A stretch of 64,000 bases of DNA, from the NCBI RefSeq assembly GCF_964186625.1, contig NZ_OZ075110.1:489501-553500 (forward strand), read 5' to 3'. Shown one piece after another: positions 19,363 to 50,019 of this stretch. The stretch is from Asticcacaulis sp. MM231. Its GTDB lineage: Bacteria; Pseudomonadota; Alphaproteobacteria; Caulobacterales; Caulobacteraceae. Numbering within the stretch: the first letter of the stretch is position 1; every line of letters begins with the position of its first letter. Both the position numbers and the translations under genes were made by a program. The notes beneath the pieces are model-generated. The model was not told where the DNA came from and did not search any database. It saw only the letters and a list, made by a program, of their open reading frames with translations.

Positions 19363-19722
19363 ATGTCTACTAATAATGTGTCAATTGAAACGGTAGGTCA
19401 CTTCGAGGCTCAACTCGGTGATCGATTATCGAAACTTAGATTGAGCCGCAATCTGACACGCGCACAACTCGCAAAGGAAACCGGTACCTCCCAACGAACG
19501 CTAGCCAGATTAGAGGCGGGAGAGGGGGGATCGCTTGATTCTTTCATTAGGGTGCTGTTAGCGCTTAACCTGGAAACGAATTTACTCAGTGTGCTGCCTG
19601 ATCCGGCCGTTCGACCGATTGAACGTGTAAAGCTGCAAGGAAAGGAGCGTCAACGCGCGCGTCCGGTTCAAGCTGAGACTAAGCCTGCATCCGAATGGGC
19701 TTGGGGAGATGACGAGGAATGA
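19363..19722 (+). CDS. hipB: HipB-like XRE-family antitoxin
   Basis: This 119-residue protein has a Cro/C1 helix-turn-helix at about residues 20-75: L-S-K-L-R-L-S-R-N-L-T-R-A-Q-L-A then T-G-T-S-Q-R-T-L-A-R-L-E-A-G. It has a basic, disordered tail ending in W-A-W-G-D-D-E-E. HipB proteins bind their operator DNA and hold the HipA kinase inactive; the C-terminal Trp-containing tail may contact HipA as in other systems. Its stop overlaps the hipA start by 4 bp (ATGA). It is preceded by paired operators that it probably binds. Confidence 0.88.
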   Translation: MSTNNVSIETVGHFEAQLGDRLSKLRLSRNLTRAQLAKETGTSQRTLARLEAGEGGSLDSFIRVLLALNLETNLLSVLPDPAVRPIERVKLQGKERQRARPVQAETKPASEWAWGDDEE

Positions 19723-30328: not shown

Positions 30329-30386
30329 GAATCTCAACGTTGTCGGCGTCCTGAACGAGAGCCGCTCCTAAGCAGACTTAAGACAA

Positions 30387-32620: not shown

Positions 32621-33151
32621 ATGGAAGAAAAGGTGAGGACCTATGAATACCGCGAAGGTTTGGAGATGTTCTATAATGGCGAAGTTTTGGGAGAAGCCGT
32701 TTACTCGGCCCTGATCGCCTCGACCGAGGATCTGACCATTCAGTTGAAGCTTTCCTATCTTTTGCAATTGGAAACCGAAACCAAAGCCTGGCTTCGCCGG
32801 TACCTCCTCGCCGCCGGTATGAATGTCGTCGAACCTGATGATATCCGCACCATGGGCGCCTCACTTGCCGCCACGATGAACGCGATGTCATGGAAGGAAG
32901 GGATGCAGGCGATTTACACGATCGCGACAGACGACCTCCTACCGCATTATCGCAGATACGCAGACGAAAGCCGTTTGCGCGGCCGGCCAGACGAAGCGGC
33001 GGTCTGCGATCACATGGTCGAACACGAGGAGGCACAGGCCGAGTTCGCCCGACGGGAACTCGACGGGAAGGACTTCGCCTATTCGGTCGAACCCTTGACG
33101 CGCCACAGCAAGTATCCGCTCGAAGCGTTGGCCGTGACGGGCATGGGCTGA
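32621..33151 (+). CDS. Small helical protein, possibly ferritin-like; first gene of the cluster
   Basis: This 176-residue protein is predicted to be all-helical. Helix-like segments carry E-V-L-G-E-A-V-Y-S-A-L (about residues 21-31), L-L-Q-L-E-T-E-T-K-A-W and, near residue 132, H-M-V-E-H-E-E-A-Q. The spacing of Glu and His residues is reminiscent of four-helix diiron proteins (ferritin-like, rubrerythrin-like), although no textbook E-x-x-H pair is complete. I do not recognise a named family. It begins 14 bases after a run GGGAAGCGG that can serve as ribosome-binding site and ends 3 bases before the phosphopantetheinyl transferase, so it belongs to the biosynthetic operon. A role as an oxygenase or as a metal-dependent accessory protein is possible. 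Confidence 0.6.
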   Translation: MEEKVRTYEYREGLEMFYNGEVLGEAVYSALIASTEDLTIQLKLSYLLQLETETKAWLRRYLLAAGMNVVEPDDIRTMGASLAATMNAMSWKEGMQAIYTIATDDLLPHYRRYADESRLRGRPDEAAVCDHMVEHEEAQAEFARRELDGKDFAYSVEPLTRHSKYPLEALAVTGMG

Positions 33152-33154
33152 GCC

Positions 33155-33895
33155 ATGGCCCTAACCGCCTTGACACTCGAAGATCCTACGCTGCCCGCCG
33201 CGGCCATTATTGCCGTACTGGAGAGCGGCCGACTGTTTCCGCCGGGGGCGAGCCTTGTTGCCGGGCGGATTCCAGATGTTGCGACCGTGGTCTATCCCGA
33301 GGAAGAGGTGAGCTTGGCGTCCGCGTCGGCAAAACGCCGCCGGGAGTTTTCGGCGGGCCGGACCGTGGCGCGCCGCGCAATCCGTGCCTTGGGGATCGAG
33401 GTTGAAGCCATTCCCGCGCGGGCGGACCGGTCGCCGGTTTGGCCGGACGGCATAACGGCCTCGATCAGTCACTCAGGGGACATCTGTGCGGCGGTTGCAG
33501 CCCGCAAAGGCGTTCTTCTCAGTATCGGTCTCGACGTTGAAATCACAGAACCGTCCGGCCGCGGACTAGCCCGATATATAGCAGGCGAGGAGGAGTTGTG
33601 CCGTGCATCGGGGGCTCTGGGTGAAGACGGCCTGGCTCTTCGTGTCTTGTTTAGCGCCAAGGAAGCGTTCTTTAAGGCGTGGCATCCGCTTTTCGGCACA
33701 TGGCTCGACTTTCATGATGTTCGCGTGGGGCTCGGGCAAGGGGCACAAAATGGAACTGACGCTTCAGCCCTTAGCTTTGATGCGCCCAACATGAGCACGG
33801 TCAGACCGCTAAATTTTCAAGGTCGATGGCAGCTTGTGGAACGGGCAGTTCTCGTTGGCGTCACCTGTTCTCTGTCAGGCTCGGACACAGGTTAG
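33155..33895 (+). CDS. 4'-phosphopantetheinyl transferase (EntD/Sfp-type)
   Basis: This 246-residue enzyme loads coenzyme A-derived phosphopantetheine onto carrier protein serines. Motifs in order are R-R-E-F-S-A-G-R (about residue 63), S-I-S-H-S-G-D (about 105), the magnesium-binding G-L-D-V-E (about 124) and F-S-A-K-E-A-F-F-K (about 165), which together define the EntD-like branch. It would activate the ACP and PCP domains of the two megasynthases downstream (Ser588, Ser1623 and Ser509). Its presence inside the cluster supports a self-contained pathway. It starts 3 bases after the previous stop; a 240-base gap without a supported gene follows. Confidence 0.93.
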   Translation: MALTALTLEDPTLPAAAIIAVLESGRLFPPGASLVAGRIPDVATVVYPEEEVSLASASAKRRREFSAGRTVARRAIRALGIEVEAIPARADRSPVWPDGITASISHSGDICAAVAARKGVLLSIGLDVEITEPSGRGLARYIAGEEELCRASGALGEDGLALRVLFSAKEAFFKAWHPLFGTWLDFHDVRVGLGQGAQNGTDASALSFDAPNMSTVRPLNFQGRWQLVERAVLVGVTCSLSGSDTG

Positions 33896-34082
33896 GGGTG
33901 GCAGCCCGGATGCGTCGCCTTCGTGCCTGTTCTCTAAATCCCGCCAAATCTTATGGAGCTGCGCAATTTGGAAAAGTGGACGAATTGGAAAGGTTGCCAA
34001 CAAAAATCGCCGTTATATCAAAGGCTTGCTAAATCCTAAGCTGAGTATCGTTACAACCGCAACCGTGTCGGGAAAAATAAGC

Positions 34083-34111
34083 TTGACAGCGATGTCAGGG
34101 GCATTTTACCA
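34083..34111 (+). promoter_or_regulatory. Possible internal promoter
   Basis: TTGACA (34083-34088) is a perfect -35 box, with a weak -10 TTACCA (34106-34111) at 17-base spacing, 25 bases before the next gene. It may give the main biosynthetic genes separate expression. Confidence 0.3.
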
Positions 34112-34135
34112 ACTCCACATATAAAAATTTATTCC

Positions 34136-35005
34136 ATGATAAAAATGGAAAGCCGCTTGCGGCATCGGGGGACTATGCTCAATTTTCGACCACAGGCTTA
34201 TTGGGACACTGGAATTGTGTCTGTCGCAAGCGCGCTGAGCGCACAGGATATTCGCGAGATCAACGCCAAGGTTGACCTTTATCTCGCGAACCATACCTAC
34301 GGCGTGGTAAGGGAAGACGGAGGCGATAGCGTCCGCGCGGTGCATGGCTTGCATCTGGTGGACCCTTTCTTCGGATCGCTTTCTGAACGTCCAGATTTCG
34401 TCGATAGCGTCGAGGAAATCCTTGGCGGATCAGTCTACGTCCATCAGTTCAAGATCAATCTCAAAGTCGCCCGTTTCGGTGAGAGCTGGCCCTGGCACCA
34501 GGATTACATCTTCTGGAAGGAGCTGGACGGTATTGGCAGGCCCGACCTCGTCAACCTGGCGATTTATCTTTCAGATGCTGACATTGACGCCGGCCCACTG
34601 CGGTTTTTACCGGGCTCCCACCATTGGGGGGATGTGTGTCAACGGGTGACACGAGACGCGGGGGCGAACGGCTCTGGGATTGACAGCGACTGGCAATCGA
34701 ATGTCGCACGGAACCTGACCTTTCAGGTGCCTGCGCCGGCATTGCAGACGCACTTGGCACAGGTCGCGCCGATCACCGCGATCCGGTCAGCCGGCGACGC
34801 TGACATCTTCCATCCCCAGCTCGTCCACGGGTCTGGACCGAACACCTCCGCGTTCGACCGAAGGCTTCTTATTATCACTTATAATCGCACCGATAACCTG
34901 CCTGAGCTAGGCGCACGCCGGCGACCGGACTTCCTGTGCTCGCAAAGGTTTGAGCCTATTCGCCTTCCCACAAAAAAAGAAGTTTCAGAGGACGTGCGCA
35001 TATGA
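34136..35005 (+). CDS. Phytanoyl-CoA dioxygenase-like Fe(II)/2-oxoglutarate oxygenase
   Basis: This 289-residue PhyH-family protein has the facial triad expected for non-haem iron: W-H-Q-D with His121 and Asp123, and the distal H-P-Q-L-V-H-G-S-G with His231. A conserved G-P-L-R-F-L-P-G-S-H-H lies between. Such enzymes hydroxylate an unactivated carbon using 2-oxoglutarate and oxygen; in natural-product clusters they commonly modify amino acid or acyl building blocks. Several starts are possible (34136, 34145, 34175), and the last gives the usual family beginning. Its stop overlaps the transporter start by 4 bp. Confidence 0.9.
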   Translation: MIKMESRLRHRGTMLNFRPQAYWDTGIVSVASALSAQDIREINAKVDLYLANHTYGVVREDGGDSVRAVHGLHLVDPFFGSLSERPDFVDSVEEILGGSVYVHQFKINLKVARFGESWPWHQDYIFWKELDGIGRPDLVNLAIYLSDADIDAGPLRFLPGSHHWGDVCQRVTRDAGANGSGIDSDWQSNVARNLTFQVPAPALQTHLAQVAPITAIRSAGDADIFHPQLVHGSGPNTSAFDRRLLIITYNRTDNLPELGARRRPDFLCSQRFEPIRLPTKKEVSEDVRI

Positions 35006-36336
35006 AGGCTCTCAAGCTTAAGGAACTGGTGAGCTACGGCGTCGGAGACGCCGGGCAGGCCCTAATCGGTACGTTGATCGGTTTCTATCAACTCTACTAT
35101 TTCACGGACATTCTGAGGCTTCCGCTTGGCAGCATCGCGGGTCTCTTCATGCTGACCAAGATTTTGGACAGCGCGAGCTTTCCCCTGTTCGGGCTTATGC
35201 TTGATCGCGTTTCGGGCGGCGTCGGCGCCTTCCTGAAATGGCGTCTTTGGCTCGTCATACCGTTCTTCGTCGTCTCTGTGCTTTTGTTCACCTACGATCC
35301 CAATTGGAGCACCGAGTTCAGGATCATCTACGCCTACGCCGTCGTGAGCCTTTTCGTGGTCCTAAGCGCCCTGATTTCGGTCGTTTACACGAGCCTGGTG
35401 TCTTCGATCGCGACACAGGCCAGCGACCGCGCCAGACTGTCGACCGTACGCTTCGTGTTCGCCTTCGGCGCCAGCACGCTTGCAACCTTCTTCATTAAAT
35501 ACCTGGTCGATTATCTCGGCGGGAAGACGGGCGGCGGTTTTCAGTCGGTGGCGTTTATCTTTTCGATTATGGCGACCGGCCTTCTCTATATCACCATGTC
35601 CGCGACCCGGAACCGGACCGTGGCGAGACCGGACGAACCTCCCCACGGTATCGGCAGCGCGTTCGCTATTGTCAGGAACCCGATGTTTCTGGGCCCTGTC
35701 GTCGCGACCTTTTTCGCAGGGCTTTTTGTCGCCTTTAAATCGCAGATGACGCTCTATTTTATCAACTATGCCATGAACCGAGAAGACATCGGCAACTTCA
35801 TGCTGGCGGGCGGTACGATCTCTTGCGCCATCGGCGTCGGCTTGGTTGGATTTGTCATCAACCGCATCAATCGGAAATCTCTCTATGTTGTCCTGATGGC
35901 GCTCAACGCGCTTTTTGTCGGAGCGATCTATTTTGTCGACAGGTCCAATATCTACACCATCATCGCGTTCCATTGCCTGAACTCGGCCCTGGGCGGCGCA
36001 TGCTCACCCGTCATCTTTTCCATCTATTCCGATGTCGTCGACTACCTGGATGAAACCTTGAATTTCAGGGCGCCGGCCCTGGTCAATTCGGTGGCCATGC
36101 TGGCGGGGCGCCTCGGCGGATCACTGGGCATGGTGCTTACGCCCGTGGGACTGGCCATATCTCAGTACCACCCCAATCAGCAGCAAACTTCAGGGTCGAT
36201 CCTGGGAATCGCATTGATGTTCACGCTGGTTCCCGGCCTCTTCGCCTTCATTTCGGCCATGGCGATGGTGACCTATAAGCTCACGAACAGGGCCTCAGAG
36301 GATATTTCGGAGCGACTTGCGGGGGAGGCCGGGTAG
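35002..36336 (+). CDS. MFS transporter of the GPH / MFS_2 type
   Basis: This 444-residue protein has about twelve hydrophobic segments. It starts L-V-S-Y-G-V-G-D-A-G-Q-A, the typical opening of the glycoside-pentoside-hexuronide:cation symporter group, and has L-F-G-L-M-L-D-R after helix 2. Members move sugars or other organic solutes with sodium or protons; relatives in natural-product clusters may export or import a precursor. It is translationally coupled to the oxygenase (ATGA overlap) and is directly followed, without a gap, by the NRPS gene. Substrate is unknown. Confidence 0.88.
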   Translation: MKALKLKELVSYGVGDAGQALIGTLIGFYQLYYFTDILRLPLGSIAGLFMLTKILDSASFPLFGLMLDRVSGGVGAFLKWRLWLVIPFFVVSVLLFTYDPNWSTEFRIIYAYAVVSLFVVLSALISVVYTSLVSSIATQASDRARLSTVRFVFAFGASTLATFFIKYLVDYLGGKTGGGFQSVAFIFSIMATGLLYITMSATRNRTVARPDEPPHGIGSAFAIVRNPMFLGPVVATFFAGLFVAFKSQMTLYFINYAMNREDIGNFMLAGGTISCAIGVGLVGFVINRINRKSLYVVLMALNALFVGAIYFVDRSNIYTIIAFHCLNSALGGACSPVIFSIYSDVVDYLDETLNFRAPALVNSVAMLAGRLGGSLGMVLTPVGLAISQYHPNQQQTSGSILGIALMFTLVPGLFAFISAMAMVTYKLTNRASEDISERLAGEAG

Positions 36337-39300
36337 ATGGGGAGTGGGTCCAGAGCCAAGGTTGGCGCAACGACGATCCTTGACAGCCTGATAGCGAACG
36401 CCGTGGCCAGACCCGATGATGTCGCATGGGTGTTTCCTCAGGACGTGCGCGAGCTTTCGAACGCGGCCCTGCTGTCAGAAGTTCGCAGGCTTGCGGCCGG
36501 ACTCGCGCGCTTTTGTGAGCCGGGCGACCGGCTAGCCATCCAGCTCCCTCAAGGTGCGGATTACGTGCTGGTATTTTGGGCCTGCATTTATGCGGGAGTG
36601 ATAGCCGTACCACTTTATCCCGGTTCCAAGCGTGACGTTAAGGCACGTCTGTCAGCGACGATCGCCGATTGTGGGGCCAAATACACAATGGTCGCTCAGG
36701 CCGTCGATCCCAGCCATCTAACGGTCCGGGACCTCCAGGGCAGCGCCGATACAGTGACTGAACCTTCATCCGCACACTCTGGACTCGCCTATATTCAGTA
36801 TAGTTCGGGATCGACCGGTGCGCCGAAAGGCGTGATGATTTCTCACGATAATATCCTAGCCAATGTCACTATGATCGCTGAGTTGGCGGCGGTGACATCG
36901 GATGACGTCTTTATCAGTTGGTTACCGCTGCACCACGACCTGGGGCTCGTAAACACCGTCCTGTTGCCGGCCTTTATGGGATGCAGGTCCGTGATTTCCA
37001 CGCCTTTGTCGTTCATGCGCAATCCCCAATCCTGGCTTGGCCTGATGACGCAATATCGGGGAACCGTGTCCGGCGCGCCGAATTTTGCCTATCAGATGTG
37101 CGTCGACCGTATGCGAACAGGCGCGCTTGAGGGCCTCGATCTCCGTGCATGGCGCGTGGCTTTCAACGCTGCTGAACCTGTGCAGGTGGAGACGCTTCGC
37201 GCGTTTGCACAAGCCTACGAACCCGCGGGCTTCAGACGGGAGTCCTTCTTTGCTGCCTATGGGATGGCTGAGGCGACCGTTTTCGTGAGCGGTGCGTTCT
37301 GGAATCAATCCCAGGAGACAACCAACGCCCAAGGCGACAACGGCGGGGTGGTCGCGCATACCATCAATTGCGGAACCGTCCCTCCGGATGACCTGGTCGT
37401 GGTGGATGAGTCCCGACAGGTCTGTGCGGATGGGCAACGGGGAGAGATATGGATACGAGGCCGGCATGTCTCCGCCGGATACTTTGGCACAGACCAGGGA
37501 GAGGCCTCGCCCTTCGCCGTTTTCACTGCGGACGGTCGCGGACCCTTTTTCAAAACCGGCGACAACGGCGCGATCCTGGGCGGGCGTCTTTACGTCCTCG
37601 GGCGAATCAAGGAAATCATCATCCAAAATGGCCGTAATCTCTATCCAACGGATCTTGAGCATGTCGCGCACAACGTCCTTGCCGGGGACAAGCGTTTTGG
37701 CGTCGTCGCGGTCATTGGCAAGGCCTGGAAAGGGACTGAGGTTCCGCTGGCGGTTGTCGAGCTTCGCGACGCATCGGACGCAAATGGGGCGGAGGACCTG
37801 CGCCGTGTGGCCGGTGCGGTCTTTGACGCACTCGACGTGGTGCTGTATGATGTTCTGACCGTTCCGGCCGGCTCCATACAAAGAACCTCGTCTGGCAAGA
37901 TCAAACGTGGCGAACTGCGCCGGATGCTCGAAGAAGGCCTTGTCGAGGGGCGCAGCCAGATGGAGCTTGGCGCGACCGGTACACCTGACGCGAACACAGC
38001 CTATGCCTTTGAACCACGCCTGATCGAACTGGTGCAAACTCTTGCCAATGAGGAGGTTATCGACCCCAACAGGTCGCTGCTCAGCTACGGCCTGTCCTCC
38101 CTCCAACTGAGCCAGCTCGCCGTAGAAGCCGAGACGATCTCGGGCGTGGCTCTGGCGGCGCGAGACATATTCGAGACACCTACGGTACGGCATATCGCCA
38201 GACTGATCCAGGCCCGCTTGTCCAAAGACGTTGTCACCGCAACGCCCGCGGCGCCGATCGGCCTGACCTGCAATCAGCAGATGATGCTTTCCGTCGATGT
38301 GTTGTCGCCCGGACATCGGGGCTACATTCTGCCGTTGGCGCTGCGACTCTCCGGAGATCTCGATCAGGCGCGCCTAGCGGCCGCCATGCGTCAGGTCGTT
38401 GCCCGCCATGACATCCTGCGAACAATCTATCCCTTGACGATAGAGGGCGTGCACAGCTCTGCCGTCTTGGAGACCGCGCTTGAGATTTCTCAAGAAACCG
38501 TCCCGGAGGCATCAATTTCGGCGGCGGTCTGCGCGTTTGCCAGTCGTGCCTTTGACCTTGCCGCCGATATACCGGTGCGTGCGAAGATATTCAGCCTGGA
38601 TGAATCTCGGGACATAGTTCTGGCGCTCGTCATTCATCACATCGCCGCCGACGGCTGGTCACTGCACCTCCTGGCGCGGGACATCGTCAAGGCCTGTCTT
38701 TCGCTGGCGGAAGCAGGGCCTTGCGTGAGGTTCGATCCGCCTCAGATCGATCAGAACGTGGTCACAAGCAGCTTGGACTATTGGCGCGCGCATTTGGCCG
38801 GATTGCCATCGGTCCACAGCCTTCCTGTGGATGCCCCCAGGCAGTCGCATCGGGAGAAGAACGGTCGGCGGTATGATCTGGTTTTGCCGCCCAGGGAGGT
38901 CAATGCGCTGAAGGGTTTGTGTGCAGCGGAGGGTGCCACCCTGTTCAGTGGCCTTCATGCCCTCTTTGCCCTGGCCCTGGCGCGGGCAGGTAATGAACCG
39001 GACATTGTGCTGGGGACATTCCTCAGTGGCCGGGACCGCTCGGGCGACACGGTACGGATCGGTTTCCTTGCGGAGACGACCTTATTGCGCACCCGGGTCG
39101 ATCTGGGTCGATCACTGCGGGACGTCATAAGATCATGCCATGGCGTCTTGCAGGAGGCTCGGCGACATCCCGGTGTCTCTTACATGGACCTGCTACGGGA
39201 ATTGAAGCCTGCGCGCGAGGCCACCCACAATCCACTGTTTCAGGTTACGCTGAATCTTCATGACTATGCGTTCGATTGCCTCACTGAACAGGAGGCAGGG

Positions 39301-41415: not shown

Positions 41416-41416
41416 A

Positions 41417-44400
41417 ATGGCTTCTGCAGCGGATCTCGACATTGCTGTGATCGGTGTCTCGTGTGAATTCGGAGGCGCGTCAGGCCTCGATGAATATTGG
41501 CGTATGATCGCCAACCAACGATCGTTCATTCGTCAGCTCGATGTAGATGAGATGGAAGACCGGGGCGCCCTACAGCAATTCGGTGCCGAGGATGTCGTGT
41601 TTCGGATATCGCCGTTAAAGGACATCGCGATTTTTGATAATCGCAAGTACGGCATTTCCAATCGCGACGCGAATATCGTCGATCCGCAGCTGAGGCTCCT
41701 GCTCAAGCATGCCAGCCTGGCGTTACGCAACAGCGGCTACGACCCAGCGCTCTACTGGGGACAAATAGGCGTGTTCGGCAGCGCTTCCATTTCCATGGAA
41801 TGGGCTTGGGAGGTTCGTGACAGCCTGGGGGCCGGAAAGACGATGGCAATCAGTGAAGTGCCCTATGTTGAACGCGACTTCTACATGACGCGTCTCGCGT
41901 ATCACCTCGGACTTCGCGGACCGGCGATCCTCTTGAATTCGGCGTGTTCATCCTCGCACGTAGCGATCCATACAGCCATCCAGTCTCTACTGGCCGGCGA
42001 TTGCGACATCGCGCTGGCCGGTGCTGGGTCGGTGCGACCTTTCTGGGCCGGCTACCACCATCAGGAAGGTGGGTTCTTCTCGCCGACAGGCGTCTGCGCG
42101 CCGTTTTCGGACGCCGCAGATGGCACCGTTCCAGGCGAGGGCGCCGCGTTTGTCGTGCTTAAACGTCTGGAAGCGGCCCGGGAAGACGGTGACAAGATTT
42201 TTTGCGTGATCAAGTCGACCGCGATCAATAACGACGGCAATCAGAAGCCAGGCTACGCAGGGCCGTCGGAGCGGGGCCAGGCCGAGGTCGTCGAGGCGGC
42301 ATTGGCGGGCGCCAACATCTCGCAAGACCAACTGGTCTATATCGAGACCCATGGCACCGGCACCAGGCTTGGAGACCCCATCGAAGTGTCTGCGCTCAAC
42401 CGGGCCCTGAAGCGCTGGGGTAAAGCCGACCGCATCCACATCGGTTCCGTCAAGGCGAACATTGGACATACGGATGTGGTGGCGGGGCTCGCCGGCCTGA
42501 TCAAGGCGGCCCTCATCCTGCGTCACGGCGAAGTGCCTCCCGAAATGCCCATCGACACGCTCAATGACCTGTGCCGTTTCGAGGAGACGCCTTTCGACCT
42601 GGCGCAGATCGCGACCGAATTGCCCGAAAAAGAAGGTCCGTGCGCCGGGATCAGCTCCTTCGGCATCGGCGGGACGAACGGGCATATTATCATTGAAGTC
42701 GGCCAAAAAGACTTCCCGCTGTCTTCACCGGTGGTGGAGGCGGGAACGCGGTTCGATGGCATCCTTCGCAAGCGCAATGCGCGCCGCACAGATCGGGCTT
42801 CCGGAGGCGCGACTATCGTCGAAGACGATTCCGGCGACGGTGCCGCCCCTGAAACGGAGACCATTCTCGCGATTTTGCGGGAGCATGCCTCGAAAGCCGA
42901 TATTTCGCTCAGCGCGCCCTTACAAGACCTCGGCATAGATTCCATCGGTGTTGTCATGATTACCGAGGAATTGGACAACCAGTTTGGCCACACGCTTTCG
43001 GCTGCGCGGTTCGCAGAGTTGACGACAGTCGCGGACCTGATCGATGCCATGCGATCACCGGAGGGGCCGACAACAGAAGGGGGTTCCGAACGGCCACCGA
43101 CCGTCATTCAGGACGTCTTCCTGGAGGGCTTTCCGGAAAGTTCCAAGCTGACCCTCGGCCAGAACAGGTTTTTCTATCCCAAGGTCGCCAACCCGTCGTC
43201 AGAGATGTGCGCCTCGATCATGGAGCTGATTGGAACCGTTCTCCCCGCGAAGGTGAAAGCCGCCATCGCCAAGACAATATTGCGCCATCAGGCCTTGCGG
43301 TCCCGATATCTGCAAGATTCCACAGGTCAGTGGTCCGTGCACTACGACGACTATCCCGCCGATGGCTATTTCAGGCACGTCAACATGGGGCCGTACGAGA
43401 CGTTTGATACCGCTGTCTATTGCGACACGGTCTTCTCGAATGTCGATTTCTCCTTCGCGCCGCTCTTCTTCGCTCACATGCTCCAATTTGAAGGTGGTAA
43501 GTGCCTGCTGATACTGTTTTCGCATAAGGTGATGCTGGACGGCACCTCCTTCAGACTAATGATGAACGATTTCGCGGCCTTCTATCAAGACGAAAATCCC
43601 AACCTGCCATCGGCTACGCCGATTTCAATTTATGCTCAGTACCAGAACAACTGGTTTGAGACGTTCGACATCGAGCAGGACCGCGCCTACTGGCGACGGG
43701 ACGAATGGGCACTTTGCGGCAATCTCCCGGTCGACCAGGAAGCCGGCATCGGGGGAAAAACCGGGGAGGAGACCGAAGCACGCGAATACGTGTCCGTTGA
43801 CGACAGTGCCGCCCTGTTGAGCCGGCTGAAGGCGCACAGGGTAGGGCTGATGGATCTGATCCTCACCGCGGTGTCGACATTTGCAACGACCCAAGCCCGA
43901 AGCGATTGGACACAGATGTCCTGTACCTTTGGCGGCAGGTCGGATGTCCTGGGCGCTACAGGCCGCGACTTTTCCAGTACAGTCGGCTTGCTTGCACTGA
44001 ACGGTCTTCTGCTGTTGCAAAAGCCGTCGGGGAAGACCGTGCTCGATCGGGTCGAGGATATGAAACACCAGTTGTCCGCCATTCCGTCTAAAGGACTGTC
44101 CTACTTCATCGGGTCCGATGCGCCGGTAAAGCTTGGTGTGGAGCGCGTGAACGTCGATAGCATGCCGTTGTATAACCGCGAGCTGACGGTCAATTTCCAC
44201 GGCTACGAAGGTTACAACGTGCCGCACATCGAGACGGCTCAGGTGGTGCCTCTAAGCAATCATATTAACGTCCCGCCTGAATATGACCGCTGGTGTCGTC
44301 TCGAACTTAATTTCGGCTTCGAAAACAGCAGATTCTACATCAGCTGCAAGTATTCCGGGGTTCAGTACCGGGGAGAAACGATCGCCTCTTTCGTGGCTGA

Positions 44401-44434
44401 AATCCGCAACGAAATCATGGCCTTACCGGAATGA
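41417..44434 (+). CDS. Ketosynthase-ACP-condensation-like protein
   Basis: This 1,005-residue protein starts with a beta-ketoacyl synthase (residues ~8-435) with complete catalytic residues: Cys177 in N-S-A-C-S-S-S, His312 in E-T-H-G-T-G-T and His351 in N-I-G-H-T. No acyltransferase or ketoreductase follows. A carrier domain has G-I-D-S-I-G (Ser509). The last ~420 residues look like a condensation-superfamily domain, with L-T-L-G-Q-N-R-F near its start, but the H-H-x-x-x-D-G motif reads H703-K704-V-M-L-D-G. The normally catalytic second His is therefore Lys. The KS could extend the acyl-aminoacyl chain using an extender loaded in trans. The terminal domain may release, dock or transfer the product; its chemistry is open. 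Confidence 0.9.
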   Translation: MASAADLDIAVIGVSCEFGGASGLDEYWRMIANQRSFIRQLDVDEMEDRGALQQFGAEDVVFRISPLKDIAIFDNRKYGISNRDANIVDPQLRLLLKHASLALRNSGYDPALYWGQIGVFGSASISMEWAWEVRDSLGAGKTMAISEVPYVERDFYMTRLAYHLGLRGPAILLNSACSSSHVAIHTAIQSLLAGDCDIALAGAGSVRPFWAGYHHQEGGFFSPTGVCAPFSDAADGTVPGEGAAFVVLKRLEAAREDGDKIFCVIKSTAINNDGNQKPGYAGPSERGQAEVVEAALAGANISQDQLVYIETHGTGTRLGDPIEVSALNRALKRWGKADRIHIGSVKANIGHTDVVAGLAGLIKAALILRHGEVPPEMPIDTLNDLCRFEETPFDLAQIATELPEKEGPCAGISSFGIGGTNGHIIIEVGQKDFPLSSPVVEAGTRFDGILRKRNARRTDRASGGATIVEDDSGDGAAPETETILAILREHASKADISLSAPLQDLGIDSIGVVMITEELDNQFGHTLSAARFAELTTVADLIDAMRSPEGPTTEGGSERPPTVIQDVFLEGFPESSKLTLGQNRFFYPKVANPSSEMCASIMELIGTVLPAKVKAAIAKTILRHQALRSRYLQDSTGQWSVHYDDYPADGYFRHVNMGPYETFDTAVYCDTVFSNVDFSFAPLFFAHMLQFEGGKCLLILFSHKVMLDGTSFRLMMNDFAAFYQDENPNLPSATPISIYAQYQNNWFETFDIEQDRAYWRRDEWALCGNLPVDQEAGIGGKTGEETEAREYVSVDDSAALLSRLKAHRVGLMDLILTAVSTFATTQARSDWTQMSCTFGGRSDVLGATGRDFSSTVGLLALNGLLLLQKPSGKTVLDRVEDMKHQLSAIPSKGLSYFIGSDAPVKLGVERVNVDSMPLYNRELTVNFHGYEGYNVPHIETAQVVPLSNHINVPPEYDRWCRLELNFGFENSRFYISCKYSGVQYRGETIASFVAEIRNEIMALPE

Positions 44435-44480
44435 TGGGGCGCAGCGATCCTACCGTAAAGTGTGACAGGGCGGAATTTTG

Positions 44481-45578
44481 ATGGACTGGAGCCTTTTTCT
44501 CATAAACGCACAGCCGCCGGGCATGAGCGCCACTGAAGTCATCAGCAATGGCGTCGAGTATGCCGTGGCGTCGGAGGGGCTCGGCTTTTCAACGGCCTGG
44601 GTGCTGGAGCACCATTTCACCCAGTTCGGACTTGTCGGCTCGCCGCTGTTTTACGCGTCCTTCCTGCTGGGTCGTACGACGTCGCTGAAGGTCGGTACGG
44701 CGATCCAGGTGATTACCCTCGACCACCCGGTCCGACTGGCCGAGCAGGTTGCGCTAATCGACCAAATGAGTGGTGGGCGTCTGATATTTGGTTTTGGTCG
44801 GGGCTATTTTTTGAAGGATTTCGTCGTTTTCGACAAAGACCGCCTGAAGACCCGCGAGATTGCGGACGAATGGCTGCGGATTATGAAATCGGCATGGACG
44901 ACCGGCCGCGCTTCGGCGGATGGTGAGCATGTTCGCTTCCCAGAGATCAATGTGTATCCGCGGCCGTACACGAAGCCGCACCCGCCGCTCTACACCGTCG
45001 CCCAAACCGATCAGACCATCGATTGGGCGGCAAGACAGGGAATTCCCCTGTTGTTGCCCTATGGATTCTCGGATCAGGATATCCTGGATATTCTCAATCG
45101 GTATAACGCCTTTGCCGAAAAAGCGGGTCTTGATCCGACAGGGCTGCCGCACGTTCTCACAGCCCTCGCCGGTGTGTCCTCCGACGGACGCCGGATCAAG
45201 GAGGCCGCGCGAGAGCGAACACTATGGTGGGAAGAAGCGAGCGAACGCGCCATGAAGTTTGGGGACACCTTGGCCTTCGAGCGATATGGGCGGCGCCCGA
45301 CTGAGGGGACCACTTGGGGGGGGGGCGGGCTCTTCGACAGAGTGAACGCCTACATGGCCAATAGCCCTATTGGTACGCCCCAGGAATGTATCGATAAGCT
45401 GAACCGGACGGTGGAGACGACGGGTATTCGCCGAATTGCCTTGGCGGTCGAGGGCGCCGGCTCGAAAGCCGCGGTTCTGCAATCGCTGCGCCAGTTTTCG
45501 GAAGAGGTTATCCCGTTTGTCGGCGATGGCGGACAGGTAAGGGGAGGGCGGGCATGTCCGACCGAAACGGCGACGTAA
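44481..45578 (+). CDS. LLM-class flavin-dependent monooxygenase
   Basis: The 365-residue product starts at the ATG at 44481 (GGGCGGA precedes it). It is a bacterial-luciferase-like TIM barrel with T-A-W-V-L-E-H-H-F at about residue 40, V-G-T-A-I-Q-V-I-T-L-D-H-P-V-R-L-A-E-Q near 75 and G-R-L-I-F-G-F-G-R-G-Y near 100. Such enzymes use reduced FMN and oxygen; close relatives act in NRPS/PKS pathways as hydroxylases or Baeyer-Villiger-type oxygenases. The 25-bp overlap with the following dehydratase gene shows tight coupling. The substrate is probably a carrier-bound or released intermediate. Confidence 0.9.
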   Translation: MDWSLFLINAQPPGMSATEVISNGVEYAVASEGLGFSTAWVLEHHFTQFGLVGSPLFYASFLLGRTTSLKVGTAIQVITLDHPVRLAEQVALIDQMSGGRLIFGFGRGYFLKDFVVFDKDRLKTREIADEWLRIMKSAWTTGRASADGEHVRFPEINVYPRPYTKPHPPLYTVAQTDQTIDWAARQGIPLLLPYGFSDQDILDILNRYNAFAEKAGLDPTGLPHVLTALAGVSSDGRRIKEAARERTLWWEEASERAMKFGDTLAFERYGRRPTEGTTWGGGGLFDRVNAYMANSPIGTPQECIDKLNRTVETTGIRRIALAVEGAGSKAAVLQSLRQFSEEVIPFVGDGGQVRGGRACPTETAT

Positions 45579-46018
45579 GTCGGGAGGAGATCCTGCAATT
45601 CACGCCCCACCGTGATCCCATGTTGTTCCTTGATCGTGGCGAAGAGTATGTACCCTTCAATCGCATGGTGGGCATCAAGACCATCGCAGTCGACGAGCCC
45701 TTTTTTCAGGGCAGCCAGCCCCACGATGGCTGCTTTCCCAACACGCTCATTCTTGAGGCAATGGGGCAGGTGGGCGGCGTGCTCATGTCAAAATCTTTTG
45801 GCGCCGATCTTTCGGGCAAATTTGTCGCCTTTATTACCATGGATAATGTTCGTTTTCTGCGCCGGGCCCGGTTAGGGGACGTGCTGCGAATGCCGGTATC
45901 CATTACGAAGTTTCGCGACAATTTTTTCCGTTTTCATGCCGAAGCCTATGTGAGTGACCGCCTTACCGCCGAATGCGATTTTTCCGGCATTGCGGTCGAT
46001 GCGCCGGTGAAAGCGTGA
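45554..46018 (+). CDS. FabZ-like 3-hydroxyacyl thioester dehydratase
   Basis: This 154-residue hot-dog-fold protein has the FabZ motifs T-P-H-R-D-P-M-L-F-L-D (catalytic His19) and F-P-N-T-L-I-L-E-A-M-G-Q (catalytic Glu). It should remove water from a beta-hydroxyacyl carrier intermediate, or act as an isomerase-like hot-dog protein. The cluster has no visible ketoreductase, so the beta-hydroxy substrate must be made by a reductase from elsewhere, or this protein has another role. It starts inside the 3' end of the monooxygenase gene after GGGGAGGG. Confidence 0.85.
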   Translation: MSDRNGDVSREEILQFTPHRDPMLFLDRGEEYVPFNRMVGIKTIAVDEPFFQGSQPHDGCFPNTLILEAMGQVGGVLMSKSFGADLSGKFVAFITMDNVRFLRRARLGDVLRMPVSITKFRDNFFRFHAEAYVSDRLTAECDFSGIAVDAPVKA

Positions 46019-46023
46019 GTACC

Positions 46024-47880
46024 ATGTCCCAGCCGCGGATCGAACCAACGACGAAGCCGCCGACAGTCGACACAGCACCAACGCGCGGGTCTCGTTCTGA
46101 GGCAAAACCCGATCACAGAGTGTCATATTTGAAAATCTGTCGGCGCATCTGGGCAGATTATTTGAGTGCGAAATCCGGGCCTCTTATAATCGCGGGAGGA
46201 TGCGCGGTTGTCGCTGCGCTGGCGACCGGCGCGTTCGGCTGGTTTTTGGAGCCAGCTTTGGATCTTCTGTTTCGCGTTCCGGAATCTAAGTACCGCTCTC
46301 TGCCTGCATGGCTTCAAAATCATGCGCAGGTCGCTGTACCCCTGTGCCTTTTTGCGATCGGCGCGGTGAGAGTTCTGGCACAGGTAGGCTTAGCGCTCTG
46401 TGTCAACACCGCCGGGCATACCTTGGTCGGGCGCTTGCAATCGCAGTTGTCGTCGCGCTTGATCGAGGCCGATCTTAAGCATCTCCGTAAAAACCATTCG
46501 GGACAGCTCCTGTCGTCAATCTTATTCGACACGGGTTTGATGCGCGAGGCGGCGACCAACGGCTTCGTCTATTACGTCCAGCATCTCCTAATTGTCGCGG
46601 CCTCCTTGTTTGTGATGATCTCCATCGATTGGCGTATCACGCTTGTCGCCATAGGTGTGGGACCTCTGGTCGGCTACATCTTTTCGTGGGCAACGGCCTG
46701 GCAGAGGCTTGCGTCTGATGGCGCTATGACGGCGACGGCCAGCCTGAGTGAGCGGCTGAAAGAGGCCTTCGACGGCATAAAGATCATCAAGATCAACAAC
46801 CGGCAGGCCGCCGAGCGAGCGCGCATCGATGCCATCATAGCCGAGCGCAGCGGGTTTATGATCAAGGGTGCCAATACCTATGCAGTTGCGGCGGCGCTCA
46901 TGGAGGCCATGGTCCAAGCGGTTATCGCCTTGGTCTTTGCCTATGTCGGTTGGCAATCCCATTCCCAGAATATTACGCTGAGTGGCTTTCTGGCGTTTAC
47001 GGCGGCGCTGGCCCTGGCGGGCCAATCCATGCAGCAACTCGCCAGCCTCCAAACGGTGATGATCGAAGGTCTGACCGCCGCCGACAAGCTTTTCGCCATC
47101 CTCGATGTGGCGCCCACGACGGCGCACGCCTCCCTGAACAAAACCTTGAGGGCCGATTTCAGGACGATCGAATTCCAGAACGTGTCATTCGCCTATGACG
47201 GCAAGCCCGTCATAAAGGATTTGAGCTTTACGGTTGAGCGAGGTCAGAGCGTTGCCATCGTCGGCCAGTCTGGGGCGGGAAAATCGACGCTTTTAAATTT
47301 GCTGGCGCGCTTCGATGATCTGACCGGCGGCCGTATTCAAATCGACGACGTCGATCATCGCGACTACACTCTGGCGTCCCTACGCGATCAAATGTCCTTC
47401 GTGACGCAGGAGACATTTTTGTTCGACGACACCATCAGCGCTAATATCGCGTACGGTCGCTCAGGTAGCAGCCCCGAGGACATTCGAAAAGCCGCTGAGC
47501 AGGCCAGCGCCCACGCGTTCATCGAAGCGCTGCCAAAGGGATATGATACCCGCGTTGGCGAAGCGGGGGTATCGCTTTCGGGTGGGCAGAGACAGCGTAT
47601 CGCTATCGCGAGGTCGTTTCTGAAGAACGCGCCGCTGTTGTTGTTGGATGAAGCCAGTTCTTCACTCGATTCCGAAGCGGAATGGCAGGTTCAGCAGGCG
47701 CTTCAGAGGTTGATGGTGGACCGTACGACCTTTATCGTTGCGCATCGCCTCTCAACGGTCCGCAACGCCGACGAAATTTTGGTCTTGAGCGACGGAAGTA
47801 TCGCGGAGCGGGGGACCCACAGCCTACTCATGGAACAGAAGGGCTTGTATAGCCTGCTCGCGAAACGGCAGTTTTCATGA
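46024..47880 (+). CDS. ABC exporter, fused membrane and ATPase domains (MsbA-like)
   Basis: From the ATG at 46024, five bases after the previous stop, the protein is 618 residues; a frame from 45973 overlaps the dehydratase gene and is less likely. The N-terminal half has six hydrophobic segments (residues ~40-330). The ATPase has Walker A G-Q-S-G-A-G-K-S-T near residue 413, signature L-S-G-G-Q-R-Q-R, Walker B L-L-L-L-D-E-A-S and the switch His in V-A-H-R-L-S. It is a half-transporter that works as a dimer and exports lipids or amphipathic compounds. In this setting it is the likely exporter of the lipopeptide product and may confer self-protection. Confidence 0.92.
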   Translation: MSQPRIEPTTKPPTVDTAPTRGSRSEAKPDHRVSYLKICRRIWADYLSAKSGPLIIAGGCAVVAALATGAFGWFLEPALDLLFRVPESKYRSLPAWLQNHAQVAVPLCLFAIGAVRVLAQVGLALCVNTAGHTLVGRLQSQLSSRLIEADLKHLRKNHSGQLLSSILFDTGLMREAATNGFVYYVQHLLIVAASLFVMISIDWRITLVAIGVGPLVGYIFSWATAWQRLASDGAMTATASLSERLKEAFDGIKIIKINNRQAAERARIDAIIAERSGFMIKGANTYAVAAALMEAMVQAVIALVFAYVGWQSHSQNITLSGFLAFTAALALAGQSMQQLASLQTVMIEGLTAADKLFAILDVAPTTAHASLNKTLRADFRTIEFQNVSFAYDGKPVIKDLSFTVERGQSVAIVGQSGAGKSTLLNLLARFDDLTGGRIQIDDVDHRDYTLASLRDQMSFVTQETFLFDDTISANIAYGRSGSSPEDIRKAAEQASAHAFIEALPKGYDTRVGEAGVSLSGGQRQRIAIARSFLKNAPLLLLDEASSSLDSEAEWQVQQALQRLMVDRTTFIVAHRLSTVRNADEILVLSDGSIAERGTHSLLMEQKGLYSLLAKRQFS

Positions 47881-49058
47881 GCAGGGGCGAGCGAGATTTT
47901 GTCAAATCGTCAGATGCGGCGCCAAGCACAAGGGAACCTGCCAGGCGGGCAATCCTTGTCACGACGGGGACGCGTGGCGATGCGGCCCCGTTTGTCGCTT
48001 ACGCTAAGGTCCTGATGGCGGAGGGTTGGGACGTCGTCCTTTTGGCAAATTCCGACCATGCCGGTATGGCCGAACTCCACGGCGTTCCCTTTGAAGCTGT
48101 CTCCCCGCCGGACTGGCCACAGATCGGTCGAGATGGGAAAGCCTTTTTCCGTACTCAGGTCATCCCAGCATATGACCGGGTTTTCAGGTTCATAGCAAAT
48201 GAAGCTCGCGATAGAGGCCGTCCGCACATTTTTAGCCGTACAGGCCATTGGGGCGCACAGTTTGCTGCCGAGGCATTGGACGTGCCCTTCACACGCATTG
48301 CCTTGCAGCCCTGTGCTATTCGGCGATATGGCCACCCGATCGCGTTCGGAGATCTGGCCATCATAAACGACTGGCGAGAAACACTGGGTTTGAACCGGTT
48401 GCCATTTCGCGGCTTCTTGAAGGAGAGATGGCAGAATACCTTGTCGTTTTTCCCTCAGGCGTATGGCGAGCCGCAGAGCCGGTGGGCGCAGGCAGGGGAT
48501 TGCGTCGGTTTTCATTATCTGGACGATCCCGCTGAGCCTGCCTCCGATATCCGCACGTTTGTGGAGCAGGGGCGTCCCGTTGTTATGTCCCTCGGAACCG
48601 GCATGCAGGATACCGCAGTGTTCCTGCGTATCGCTGAAAATGTGGCCAAAAGGACGGATGTACCAGTGCTGTTTCTCAGCCCGTTTGTTGAAACCGAGGA
48701 CACGCGACAGGATGGCCGCCTTCTGTGCCGAAAGCGGGTAGACCACGGTTATCTTCTGCCCCACGCGAGACTCATGATTCACAACGGTGGCATTGGGGCC
48801 GTTGGCCAAGGCCTAAGGGCCGGCATTCCCCAGGTGATCGTCCCGAGGCTTTATGATCAGCCGGACAATGCACGCCGGGTTCTGCGTATTGGTGCCGGCG
48901 TTCGTATTCTCCCGCCGCTGTTCTGGAAGGGTCCCGGCCTGGCCGTATTCGAAAACCGTTTGATCGCCCAGATCGAGCACCTGCTCGGGACATCATCCAC
49001 CACGACGGCACACGCAAGTGTACTCGACAGCATGTCGAGCCAGAGAGACGGGGCGTGA
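47877..49058 (+). CDS. GT1-family (UGT-like) glycosyltransferase
   Basis: This 393-residue GT-B enzyme has V-T-T-G-T-R-G-D-A-A-P-F near residue 29, typical of sterol glucosyltransferase-like and macrolide-modifying enzymes. The C-terminal donor-binding motif is H-N-G-G-I-G-A-V-G-Q-G-L-R-A-G near residue 301, with D-Q-P-D-N-A after it. It transfers a nucleotide-activated sugar to a small lipophilic acceptor. The start overlaps the ABC exporter stop by 4 bp. It implies that the mature product carries a sugar. Sugar identity is unknown; no deoxysugar genes are in the cluster. Confidence 0.9.
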   Translation: MSRGERDFVKSSDAAPSTREPARRAILVTTGTRGDAAPFVAYAKVLMAEGWDVVLLANSDHAGMAELHGVPFEAVSPPDWPQIGRDGKAFFRTQVIPAYDRVFRFIANEARDRGRPHIFSRTGHWGAQFAAEALDVPFTRIALQPCAIRRYGHPIAFGDLAIINDWRETLGLNRLPFRGFLKERWQNTLSFFPQAYGEPQSRWAQAGDCVGFHYLDDPAEPASDIRTFVEQGRPVVMSLGTGMQDTAVFLRIAENVAKRTDVPVLFLSPFVETEDTRQDGRLLCRKRVDHGYLLPHARLMIHNGGIGAVGQGLRAGIPQVIVPRLYDQPDNARRVLRIGAGVRILPPLFWKGPGLAVFENRLIAQIEHLLGTSSTTTAHASVLDSMSSQRDGA

Positions 49059-49104
49059 AAATGCCACACCGACACAGTGCATATGAGTTGCCATCAAGGG
49101 GACT

Positions 49105-50019
49105 ATGGGGATGATCGAACGCGAAGGACGGCCCGCACGGGGGAGGGGTGAAAAATGCGAAGTCTGTGATCGCATCTGGCAGTGGATCGGATCGCCATTC
49201 TGGCTATTGTCACGCGTCTATGTCTTCATCTTCGGGCGTGTGTTATTCCAGAGTTTCAATGACTTCGTTTTCGAAACGCTGCTGAAGGCGCGCGGCTACA
49301 ACAACTGCTGCGACCTTAAGACGACGGGTGAACGCAACTTCCTCAAATTGGTCGCTCGCCTGAATCCGACCCATTGCATAGATGTCGGGGCTAATGTTGG
49401 AGCATTCTCACAACGTCTTTTAGAGACAACCGGCGCGTCCGTGCTCGCTTTCGAGCCTTTGCCTCTGGCTTTCGACAAACTTCGCCAACTGCAGGACCGT
49501 TACCCAAACCGGTTTGTCCCGATATCTAAGGGACTTGGCAGCGTACCTGGCATGTTCGATCTGGCCTTTGGGAAGGAGAATATCGAGCTTGCGACCTTTA
49601 GTTCCGATGCCCGGAAAATTGATTACGTAGAGTTTTTCAATAACGACACGGTTAAAGCAGAAGTGGTCACATTGGACGCGTTTATCGAGAGTACAGACAT
49701 CGATTTTGACTTTTCAAACGTTGACCTCCTCAAGATCGATACGGAGGGCTTTGAACAACATGTTCTGCTGGGCGCCAAGAACTTCATTGCCACCCGTCGA
49801 CCCAAGCTTATTCAAATTGAGTATAACTGGCATCAGTTGTTCACGGGGCATACCCTCTATAGCTTTGCAGCCTTGCTCTCAGGCTACGAGGCTTTCGTAA
49901 TATTGCCGTATGGCACGAAGCTAAAAAAGGTGGACCCGTCAAAGCCCGACAACAACATCTTTCATTTCTCCAATTTTGTCTTCATTCGGAACGACGTAGA
50001 GTTTAGTCGCTATTCATAG
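49105..50019 (+). CDS. FkbM-family methyltransferase
   Basis: This 304-residue protein has a short N-terminal hydrophobic stretch and an FkbM methyltransferase domain: C-I-D-V-G-A-N-V-G-A-F-S-Q near residue 92, A-F-E-P-L-P near residue 114 and L-L-K-I-D-T-E-G-F-E-Q near residue 208. FkbM enzymes O-methylate sugars or hydroxylated polyketides with S-adenosylmethionine. Following the glycosyltransferase, it may methylate the attached sugar. It is the last gene of the cluster; its stop is directly followed by an IS91-like transposase remnant. Confidence 0.9.
   Translation: MGMIEREGRPARGRGEKCEVCDRIWQWIGSPFWLLSRVYVFIFGRVLFQSFNDFVFETLLKARGYNNCCDLKTTGERNFLKLVARLNPTHCIDVGANVGAFSQRLLETTGASVLAFEPLPLAFDKLRQLQDRYPNRFVPISKGLGSVPGMFDLAFGKENIELATFSSDARKIDYVEFFNNDTVKAEVVTLDAFIESTDIDFDFSNVDLLKIDTEGFEQHVLLGAKNFIATRRPKLIQIEYNWHQLFTGHTLYSFAALLSGYEAFVILPYGTKLKKVDPSKPDNNIFHFSNFVFIRNDVEFSRYS

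What the first reader, a model, noticed from the sequence alone, without database searches (positions are those of the whole stretch)
32621..50019. Undescribed oxidised, glycosylated lipopeptide/polyketide gene cluster
Eleven co-directional genes, many overlapping, encode a complete-looking route: PPTase, fatty acyl-AMP ligase-ACP-C-A-PCP, KS-ACP-C-like protein, two oxygenases (PhyH and luciferase-like), a FabZ-like dehydratase, MFS and ABC transporters, a GT1 glycosyltransferase and an FkbM methyltransferase. Domain content is read from motifs. The predicted product is a short acyl-aminoacyl chain extended by one ketide, oxidised, glycosylated and O-methylated. I know of no characterised cluster with this gene set.
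Basis: partly seen in the sequence, partly recalled or inferred. Interest (0 to 1): 0.88.

Follow-up and report, generated by a model that had tools for sequence, protein, structure and literature searches.

The report
Orphan oxidised glyco-lipopeptide/ketide gene cluster
A bacterium carries an intact 11-gene assembly line that probably joins a fatty acid, one amino acid and one malonate unit, then oxidises and glycosylates the product; it resembles known tetramic-acid pathways but has an odd degenerate end domain and a luciferase-like enzyme, and no close relative was found in the searches made.

Summary

Corrections: (1) The 'KS-ACP-C-like' protein is KS-ACP plus a degenerate epimerisation-type domain: it groups with E domains (100/99, long branch), reads HKxxxDG for HHxxxDG and lacks the EGHGRE glutamate. 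(2) It has no AT; the genome's one AT hit is on another contig. (3) The 'MFS' protein is a GPH sugar-symporter type; the exporter is the MsbA-like ABC protein. (4) The luciferase-like enzyme is nearest to true LuxA (38%).

The closest characterised logic is mutanocyclin/reutericyclin (C-A-PCP plus AT-less KS-ACP-TE), giving an N-acyl tetramic acid. Here FAAL-ACP is fused in front and the TE is absent, so it is not a member.

Best reading: an N-acyl-aminoacyl ketide, possibly cyclised, oxidised by two or three oxygenases, glycosylated and exported. Release and ring closure are inferred. No close relative was found in the plasmid collection, genus, family, class and phylum samples, or one genome-contig scan. 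MIBiG and antiSMASH were not available. New variant of a known kind.

The parts
32621..33151 (+). P0003, 176 aa, probable ferritin-like (helical bundle) protein, candidate metal oxygenase or accessory
   Evidence: No Pfam or NCBIfam hit at E 0.001; at E 10 Pfam gives only Chap-C, E 0.063, and PDB sequence hits are unrelated chains, best E 0.024. Single-sequence model all-helical, mean pLDDT 55. Top Foldseek hits sulerythrin, rubrerythrin, bacterioferritin, best E 0.15, TM only 0.33-0.42. Relatives L126/L127 at 27/25% share E21, E25, E51, E134, H135, E136; L126 has a sub-threshold rubrerythrin match E=0.14, L127 none.
33155..33895 (+). Sfp/PptT-type 4'-phosphopantetheinyl transferase
   Evidence: 4PPT_N and ACPS; motifs IGLDVE and FSAKEAFFK; one of two ACPS-family hits in the genome.
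34136..35005 (+). PhyH Fe(II)/2-oxoglutarate dioxygenase; HQD motif, so hydroxylase rather than halogenase
   Evidence: PF05721 111 bits; HQD at 121. Plasmid relatives at 39.8% and 36.9% sit in NRPS or A-domain/ACP clusters.
35002..36336 (+). GPH-type (MFS_2) sugar:cation symporter-like transporter
   Evidence: PF13347 162 bits; TIGR00792 222.5 bits against cut-off 231.
36337..41415 (+). P0001, FAAL-ACP-C-A-PCP loading and elongation protein, 1692 aa
   Evidence: Pfam, FAAL NCBIfam models below their cut-offs, motifs.
36373..37926 (+). FAAL domain
   Evidence: PRK05850 fatty-acid--AMP ligase 310 bits, cut-off 775; aligns with the N-terminal region of the Nostoc protein.
37999..38211 (+). ACP, Ser in GLSSL at residue 585
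   Evidence: Two PP-binding stretches in the protein, motif.
38263..39498 (+). Condensation domain, HHIAADG
   Evidence: PF00668 196 bits; motif.
39583..41046 (+). Adenylation domain; pocket read by hand as D-M-T-N-F-T-H-V-V-K, substrate not assignable
   Evidence: AMP-binding and AMP-binding_C. Pocket positions taken from recalled PheA numbering, not from a tool.
41125..41304 (+). PCP, GGDSM
   Evidence: PP-binding, motif.
41417..44434 (+). P0002, AT-less KS-ACP with terminal epimerisation-type domain, 1005 aa
   Evidence: Pfam; no Acyl_transf_1 match.
41438..42709 (+). KS with Cys-His-His triad (ACSSS, THGTGT, KANIGH)
42887..43048 (+). ACP, GIDSI
43190..44407 (+). Degenerate epimerisation-type (condensation superfamily) domain, HKVMLDG
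   Evidence: Groups with E domains at 100/99 among 55 domains; EGHGRE glutamate absent; two alternative placements rejected; TIGR01720 18.4 bits, cut-off 74.2, E=0.0015.
44478..45578 (+). LuxA-like FMN-dependent monooxygenase (likely start ATG 44481)
   Evidence: PF00296 184 bits; luciferase alpha model 264 bits against cut-off 600; 38% to LuxA; beside the LuxA/LuxB stem, support 93/81.
45554..46018 (+). FabZ-like dehydratase, catalytic His and Glu present
45973..47880 (+). MsbA-like ABC exporter (likely start 46024)
   Evidence: ABC_membrane and ABC_tran; TIGR02203 469 bits, below its cut-off of 602.
47877..49058 (+). GT1-type glycosyltransferase
   Evidence: EryCIII-like_C and Glyco_transf_28 narrowly above cut-off; MGT subfamily 48 bits, far below its cut-off of 260.
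49105..50019 (+). FkbM-family SAM methyltransferase
   Evidence: PF05050 65 bits; TIGR01444 75 bits, above cut-off.

Best explanation
The operon is a self-contained hybrid NRPS-PKS line for a small N-acylated amino acid-ketide. Shown by sequence: the domain order and the intact catalytic motifs. Inferred: the FAAL adenylates a fatty acid and loads the fused ACP. The C domain joins it to one amino acid on the PCP. The separate AT-less KS-ACP extends it by one malonate, with malonyl supplied by the housekeeping malonyl transferase (FabD). This gives an N-acyl-aminoacyl-beta-keto thioester, the intermediate that MucE closes to an N-acyl tetramic acid. The terminal E-type domain sits where MucE has its TE and where epifadin's EfiE has a CT domain; it most likely binds or positions the ACP-bound chain for release, possibly by lactam closure. 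The FabZ-like enzyme probably sets a double bond, in the acyl chain or after FabG reduction of the ketide. The PhyH, the LuxA-like enzyme and perhaps the ferritin-like protein oxidise, the GT1 enzyme adds a sugar, FkbM methylates an oxygen and the MsbA-like protein exports. My confidence in the N-acyl-aminoacyl-ketide backbone is about 0.6, and in tetramate or pyrrolinone ring closure about 0.3.
For: Domains and motifs. These are the only two condensation hits in the genome; the one AT hit lies on another contig. An A-PCP region lies just upstream of the KS in 7 of the 13 other KS loci fetched, whose flanks are about 1.5 kb. Two plasmid PhyH relatives are assembly-line associated. A Nostoc plasmid has FAAL-ACP-C-A-PCP (30% identical) followed by a protein starting with KS. 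Precedents: MucD (C-A-PCP) and MucE (KS-ACP-TE), with in vitro extension and lactam closure (PMC10161427, passages); MucE needs an AT from the host (PMC6694145, passages); AT-less PKS with a terminal condensation-like domain in epifadin (PMC11310079, passages).
Against: There is no TE, reductase or other recognised release domain among the eleven ORFs, and the terminal domain has lost the catalytic His and the E-motif Glu. No KR is encoded, so the FabZ-like enzyme lacks an obvious substrate on the assembly line. MucA-C-type acetylation genes are absent from the eleven. The A-domain substrate could not be assigned. Single-sequence models were poor (mean pLDDT 55 and 33).
Confidence: 0.55

Rival explanations
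1. The product is a cell-envelope aminoglycolipid rather than a diffusible metabolite: a lipo-amino acid is built, glycosylated and flipped by the MsbA-like transporter.
For: The exporter scores highest with lipid A flippase MsbA models (TIGR02203 469 bits, below cut-off) and also with a HepA-family model (343 bits). GT1 and FabZ suit lipid chemistry. No resistance gene or regulator was recognised among the eleven ORFs.
Against: MsbA-like ABC proteins also export lipopeptides (recalled). Two or three oxygenases plus a methyltransferase, and absence of the first ORF from the 24 other genus genomes searched, look more like specialised metabolism.
Confidence: 0.2
2. The chain is released linear: the KS-ACP protein makes a beta-keto or vinylogous N-acyl amino acid (after FabG and FabZ action) that leaves by hydrolysis or decarboxylation, without ring closure.
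For: FabZ-like dehydratase with catalytic His and Glu; no recognised cyclase; terminal domain lacks catalytic residues.
Against: No KR or hydrolytic TE among the eleven ORFs; in mutanocyclin the same type of intermediate is closed to a lactam (PMC10161427, passages).
Confidence: 0.25
3. The terminal domain is a divergent condensation or CT-type cyclisation domain and its placement with E domains is a long-branch artefact.
For: Its branch is very long (2.68) and its letter make-up is odd. Five of the nine loci behind the tree were fetched because they matched this domain, so E domains like it were favoured. Epifadin and, as that paper reports, malonomycin have terminal condensation-like domains (PMC11310079, passages). 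Neither of those CT domains was in the tree.
Against: Placement with E domains 100/99, although every one of the five loci also supplied C domains to the tree; two alternative groupings, chosen after seeing the tree, were rejected (AU p 0.005 and 0.028). In the five genomes whose surroundings I fetched, a hit of the ACP-plus-terminal-domain query falls on an E-clade domain and not on a C domain (coordinates compared by hand).
Confidence: 0.15

Closest known systems
Mutanocyclin (muc) and reutericyclin (rtc) N-acyl tetramic acid clusters, MucD/MucE
   Same: Two-protein line: C-A-PCP NRPS followed by an AT-less KS-ACP PKS that adds one malonate to an N-acyl amino acid (passages read).
   Different: Here FAAL-ACP is fused in front, the terminal TE is replaced by a degenerate E-type domain, mucA-C are absent from the eleven genes, and PhyH, LuxA-like, FabZ, GT and FkbM genes are added.
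Epifadin cluster (EfiE)
   Same: AT-less PKS modules and a C-terminal condensation-like domain proposed for tetramate formation (passages read).
   Different: In epifadin the last amino acid is joined after the polyene chain and a discrete AT (EfiB) is encoded; here the amino acid precedes the single ketide and no AT gene is in the cluster.
FAAL-initiated lipopeptide and lipoketide clusters (jamaicamide, hapalosin; Nostoc sp. UHCC 0926 plasmid pn1)
   Same: FAAL loads a carrier protein (review PMC11837247, passages). The Nostoc plasmid has FAAL-ACP-C-A-PCP then a KS-first protein.
   Different: Only 30% identity to the Nostoc protein. In the reviewed examples the FAAL is stand-alone (JamA) or a FAAL-ACP didomain (HapA), not fused to C-A-PCP.
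Bacterial luciferase LuxA
   Same: Nearest sequence family found for the 366-aa enzyme: 38% to LuxA, 37% to the Enhygromyxa homologue. H45, H46, R108 and H225 shared across four aligned rows.
   Different: No LuxB-like gene next to it; the only LuxC-family hit in the genome is a weak 32-bit match; it sits in a biosynthetic operon.

Membership tests
Hybrid NRPS-PKS lipopeptide cluster | Acyl-activating enzyme plus C-A-PCP module plus KS-ACP, with PPTase | tested here: met
muc/rtc tetramic acid clusters | C-A-PCP NRPS paired with AT-less KS-ACP PKS | tested here: met
   precedent.
muc/rtc tetramic acid clusters | Terminal thioesterase on the PKS | tested here: not met
   Terminal domain is condensation superfamily, E clade.
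muc/rtc tetramic acid clusters | MucA, MucB, MucC acetylation genes | tested here: not met
   None of the eleven ORFs is of that kind; the rest of the genome was not searched for them.
muc/rtc tetramic acid clusters | Product is an N-acyl tetramic acid | not testable with these tools
   Needs expression and NMR.
NRPS epimerisation domain | Groups with E domains in a tree | tested here: met
   100/99 with 8 other domains of 55 in all, 7 of them labelled E by context; long branch.
NRPS epimerisation domain | HHxxxDG with second His, and EGHGRE Glu | tested here: not met
   HKVMLDG and CTFGGRS in the alignment.
trans-AT PKS | No AT in the module | tested here: met
   No PF00698 match in P0002.
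trans-AT PKS | Dedicated discrete AT in the cluster | tested here: not met
   One PF00698 hit in the genome, on contig C1.
Bacterial luciferase (LuxAB) | LuxA with LuxB partner and acid reductase genes | tested here: not met
   Only one luciferase-family gene among the eleven; the LuxC-family search gives one 32-bit hit, and the same search rings in 9 of 14 control genomes, E. coli and B. subtilis included. LuxB, LuxD and LuxE were not searched genome-wide.
PhyH halogenases | HxA/HxG in place of HxD/HxE (recalled) | tested here: not met
   HQD; chlorinating-enzyme model 25 bits against cut-off 226.

The most novel reading that the evidence does not exclude
The terminal epimerisation-type domain, stripped of its catalytic His and Glu and placed on an AT-less KS-ACP, is a new kind of release or cyclisation domain for acyl-aminoacyl ketides. 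The neighbouring LuxA-like enzyme is a biosynthetic oxygenase from the lineage next to the origin of bacterial luciferase.
Probability: 0.15. Interest if true: 0.75.

Novelty: new variant of a known kind. Interest (0 to 1): 0.5.

Why it matters
Orphan NRPS-PKS clusters are common, so the cluster alone is not startling. It adds two testable oddities. One is a KS-ACP protein whose usual release domain is replaced by a catalytically stripped epimerisation-type domain. The other is a LuxA-like monooxygenase in a biosynthetic operon, on a lineage beside the luciferase stem, relevant to the question of what bacterial luciferase did before it made light. The line is short (one amino acid, one ketide), which makes in vitro reconstitution realistic.

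Tried and rejected
Close relatives of the cluster were sought and not found. A genome-contig scan with P0002 gave 6 pattern matches and 0 relatives; the own or a very near genome may be left out of that collection. P0002 gave no full-length match at the E limits used in 299 family genomes (E 1e-60), 385 class genomes (E 1e-90) or 72,556 plasmid records (E 1e-40): 8 other family and 5 other class genomes matched, over the KS part only, and 0 of 665 matching plasmid records covered 80% of it. The ACP-plus-terminal-domain query hit 11 genomes besides the own one, of 398, at 24-28% identity. P0003: 0 of the 24 other genus genomes, 2 genomes besides the own one, of 398, at 25-26%, none in plasmids. 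The LuxA-like protein at E 1e-45: 1 genome besides the own one, of 289. The genome searches are samples, and the short-pattern scan finds close relatives only.

Considered and rejected: PhyH as halogenase (HQD motif); a lux light-producing operon (LuxC search); a canonical condensation reaction by the last domain (tree and motifs). A similar cluster around LuxA-like genes elsewhere: none of the 80 loci had a P0002-like or NRPS-like gene beyond weak matches at E 1e-8 (KS 26-27% in L039, L040, L042; A domain about 25% in L047, L088; ABC protein in seven loci, up to 47% over the ATPase part in L059).

Led nowhere: AlphaFold of the terminal domain (mean pLDDT 33; not searched further); 16S retrieval to name the organism (0 matches, although the search rings in controls); flank comparison to plasmids (one match over 1% of the query). 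The organism is not identified; a Caulobacteraceae source is only a guess from weak hints (GH92 relatives in Sphingomonas, Asticcacaulis and Novosphingobium, 50-56%). Paper searches: 0 papers for 4 of 5 cluster terms; in the listings (listings and abstract starts only, several cut to the best 9-12) I saw no such cluster. One paper found there, PMC10100984, lists an Asticcacaulis isolate with one NRPS cluster (passages); its relation to this window is unknown. PMC3940840 was opened for one passage and not used.

Full report
OBSERVATION. The eleven ORFs are all present, on the + strand, at the stated coordinates. Pfam supports PPTase, PhyH, an MFS-superfamily transporter, AMP-ligase/carrier/condensation/AMP-ligase/carrier, KS-carrier-condensation superfamily, a luciferase-like monooxygenase, a FabA/FabZ-like protein, an ABC exporter, a GT1-type glycosyltransferase (narrowly) and an FkbM methyltransferase. 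NCBIfam points the first AMP ligase to FAALs and the dehydratase to FabZ, both below those models' cut-offs. Motifs searched for are intact: GLSSL in the first ACP, C HHIAADG, A-domain SGSTGEPK, YGPTE and NGKI, PCP GGDSM, KS ACSSS, THGTGT and KANIGH, ACP GIDSI, PhyH HQD, FabZ PHRDP and LILEAMGQ, Walker A and LSGGQ in the ABC protein, DVGANVG in FkbM.

THE FIRST ORF. The 176-aa protein has no family hit (at E 10 only a Chap-C match at 0.063; PDB sequence matches are unrelated, best E 0.024). Two relatives from a 398-genome phylum sample (27 and 25% in the alignment) share conserved acids and a His. One of them has a sub-threshold rubrerythrin match (E 0.14); the other has none. A low-confidence all-helical model (pLDDT 55) has ferritin-superfamily proteins as its top Foldseek hits, but the best E is 0.15 and the TM-scores are 0.33-0.42. 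Ferritin-like is therefore probable, not shown; a di-iron oxygenase role is a guess.

THE KS-ACP PROTEIN. No AT is present in it, and the genome has a single AT-family hit, on contig C1, presumably FabD. I compared its last domain with 54 other condensation-superfamily domains: 53 from nine fetched NRPS loci and one from P0001. By domain context 42 of the 55 were labelled C and 7 E; six were unlabelled, this domain among them. Five of the nine loci had been fetched because of a match to this domain; four had been found with P0001. It groups with the E domains at 100/99, reads HKVMLDG where they read HHLVVDG or HHLVVDA, and lacks the glutamate of EGHGRE. Two alternative groupings, chosen after the tree was seen, were rejected by AU tests (p 0.005 and 0.028). 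The branch is long (2.68) and no CT domain was knowingly included in the set, so some doubt remains. TIGR01720, which I recall as a model of the C-terminal part of E domains, matches it weakly (18.4 bits against a cut-off of 74.2).

INTERFACE. The best KS matches in the family and class samples include KSs of hybrid lines: in 7 of 13 such loci, whose flanks are about 1.5 kb, an A-PCP region lies just upstream; in the other six it was not seen at E 1e-8 in that form (one of them, L013, has an AMP-ligase and carrier domain before the KS). A Nostoc plasmid has a FAAL-ACP-C-A-PCP protein, 30% identical, followed by a protein that begins with a KS. This supports a PCP-to-KS hand-over.

TAILORING. 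The PhyH protein has 39.8 and 36.9% identical relatives in an Alteromonas NRPS cluster and a Streptomyces A-domain/ACP cluster; these are two of the three relatives whose surroundings I fetched, the third being unannotated. The luciferase-like enzyme is nearest to LuxA: 38% to the best LuxA, 37% to the Enhygromyxa homologue, 27-35% to LuxB. The tree had 45 rows, taken from 33 loci chosen by me out of the 83 (L033-L115) then at hand that held such genes. In it the enzyme lies beside the branch that separates LuxA, LuxB and the Enhygromyxa protein from other luciferase-like proteins (support 93/81, not starred). LuxA and LuxB are joined there as two long branches, and its own branch is long (0.98), so its exact place is unsure. 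The GPH-type transporter is a sugar-symporter type rather than a drug exporter. The A-domain pocket, read by hand against recalled PheA positions, is D-M-T-N-F-T-H-V-V-K and matches no code that I can assign.

DISTRIBUTION. The two condensation hits in this cluster are the only ones in the genome. None of the 24 other genus genomes searched has the first ORF. No full-length relative of the KS-ACP protein was seen in samples of 299 family and 385 class genomes, in 72,556 plasmids, or by one genome-contig scan. The NRPS protein's top-ranked plasmid match is 31.9% identical; 148 of 513 plasmid records with a match cover 80% of it. The shared protein database was off, and no MIBiG or antiSMASH was at hand, so a known cluster could have been missed.

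MECHANISM. The closest characterised logic is mutanocyclin. There MucD (C-A-PCP) makes an N-acyl leucine and MucE (KS-ACP-TE) adds malonate and closes the lactam, shown in vitro (PMC10161427, passages read). MucE also lacks an AT and relies on the host (PMC6694145, passages read). Epifadin has an AT-less PKS and a terminal condensation-like domain proposed to form its tetramate (PMC11310079, passages read). The window's line would make the same type of intermediate from a FAAL-loaded acid. Because the TE is absent and the terminal domain has lost its catalytic residues, release and ring closure are inference only.

VERDICT. Observation confirmed; interpretation partly supported. It is a new variant of a known kind, not a member of the muc/rtc family, with an unusual terminal domain and an unusual LuxA-like oxygenase. 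Interest 0.5.

Noticed in passing
window 19719-21581 (+) and 25616-26866 (-): Two HipA-like kinases; the first has an extra C-terminal part matching CarboxypepD_reg and Big_1 below cut-off, an odd fusion.
   Followed up: no
window 5436-14657 (+): A 3073-aa ORF with no Pfam hit and higher GC (0.59-0.64), followed by a TPR-sulfotransferase and a TPR protein.
   Followed up: no
window 54493-55998 (-): Tryptophan halogenase family protein (594 bits) next to GH76, GH2 and GH92 glycosidase genes; probably a sugar-utilisation locus.
   Followed up: no
window 28856-31922 (-): Two adjacent carboxylesterases near the operon's start, on the other strand.
   Followed up: no
L119 19836-31100 approx: Nostoc sp. 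UHCC 0926 plasmid pn1 carries FAAL-ACP-C-A-PCP followed by a KS-first protein, the same order as here.
   Followed up: partly
L059 from 10001 on: A Dehalococcoidia MAG locus has two neighbouring luciferase-like ORFs that group together.
   Followed up: no
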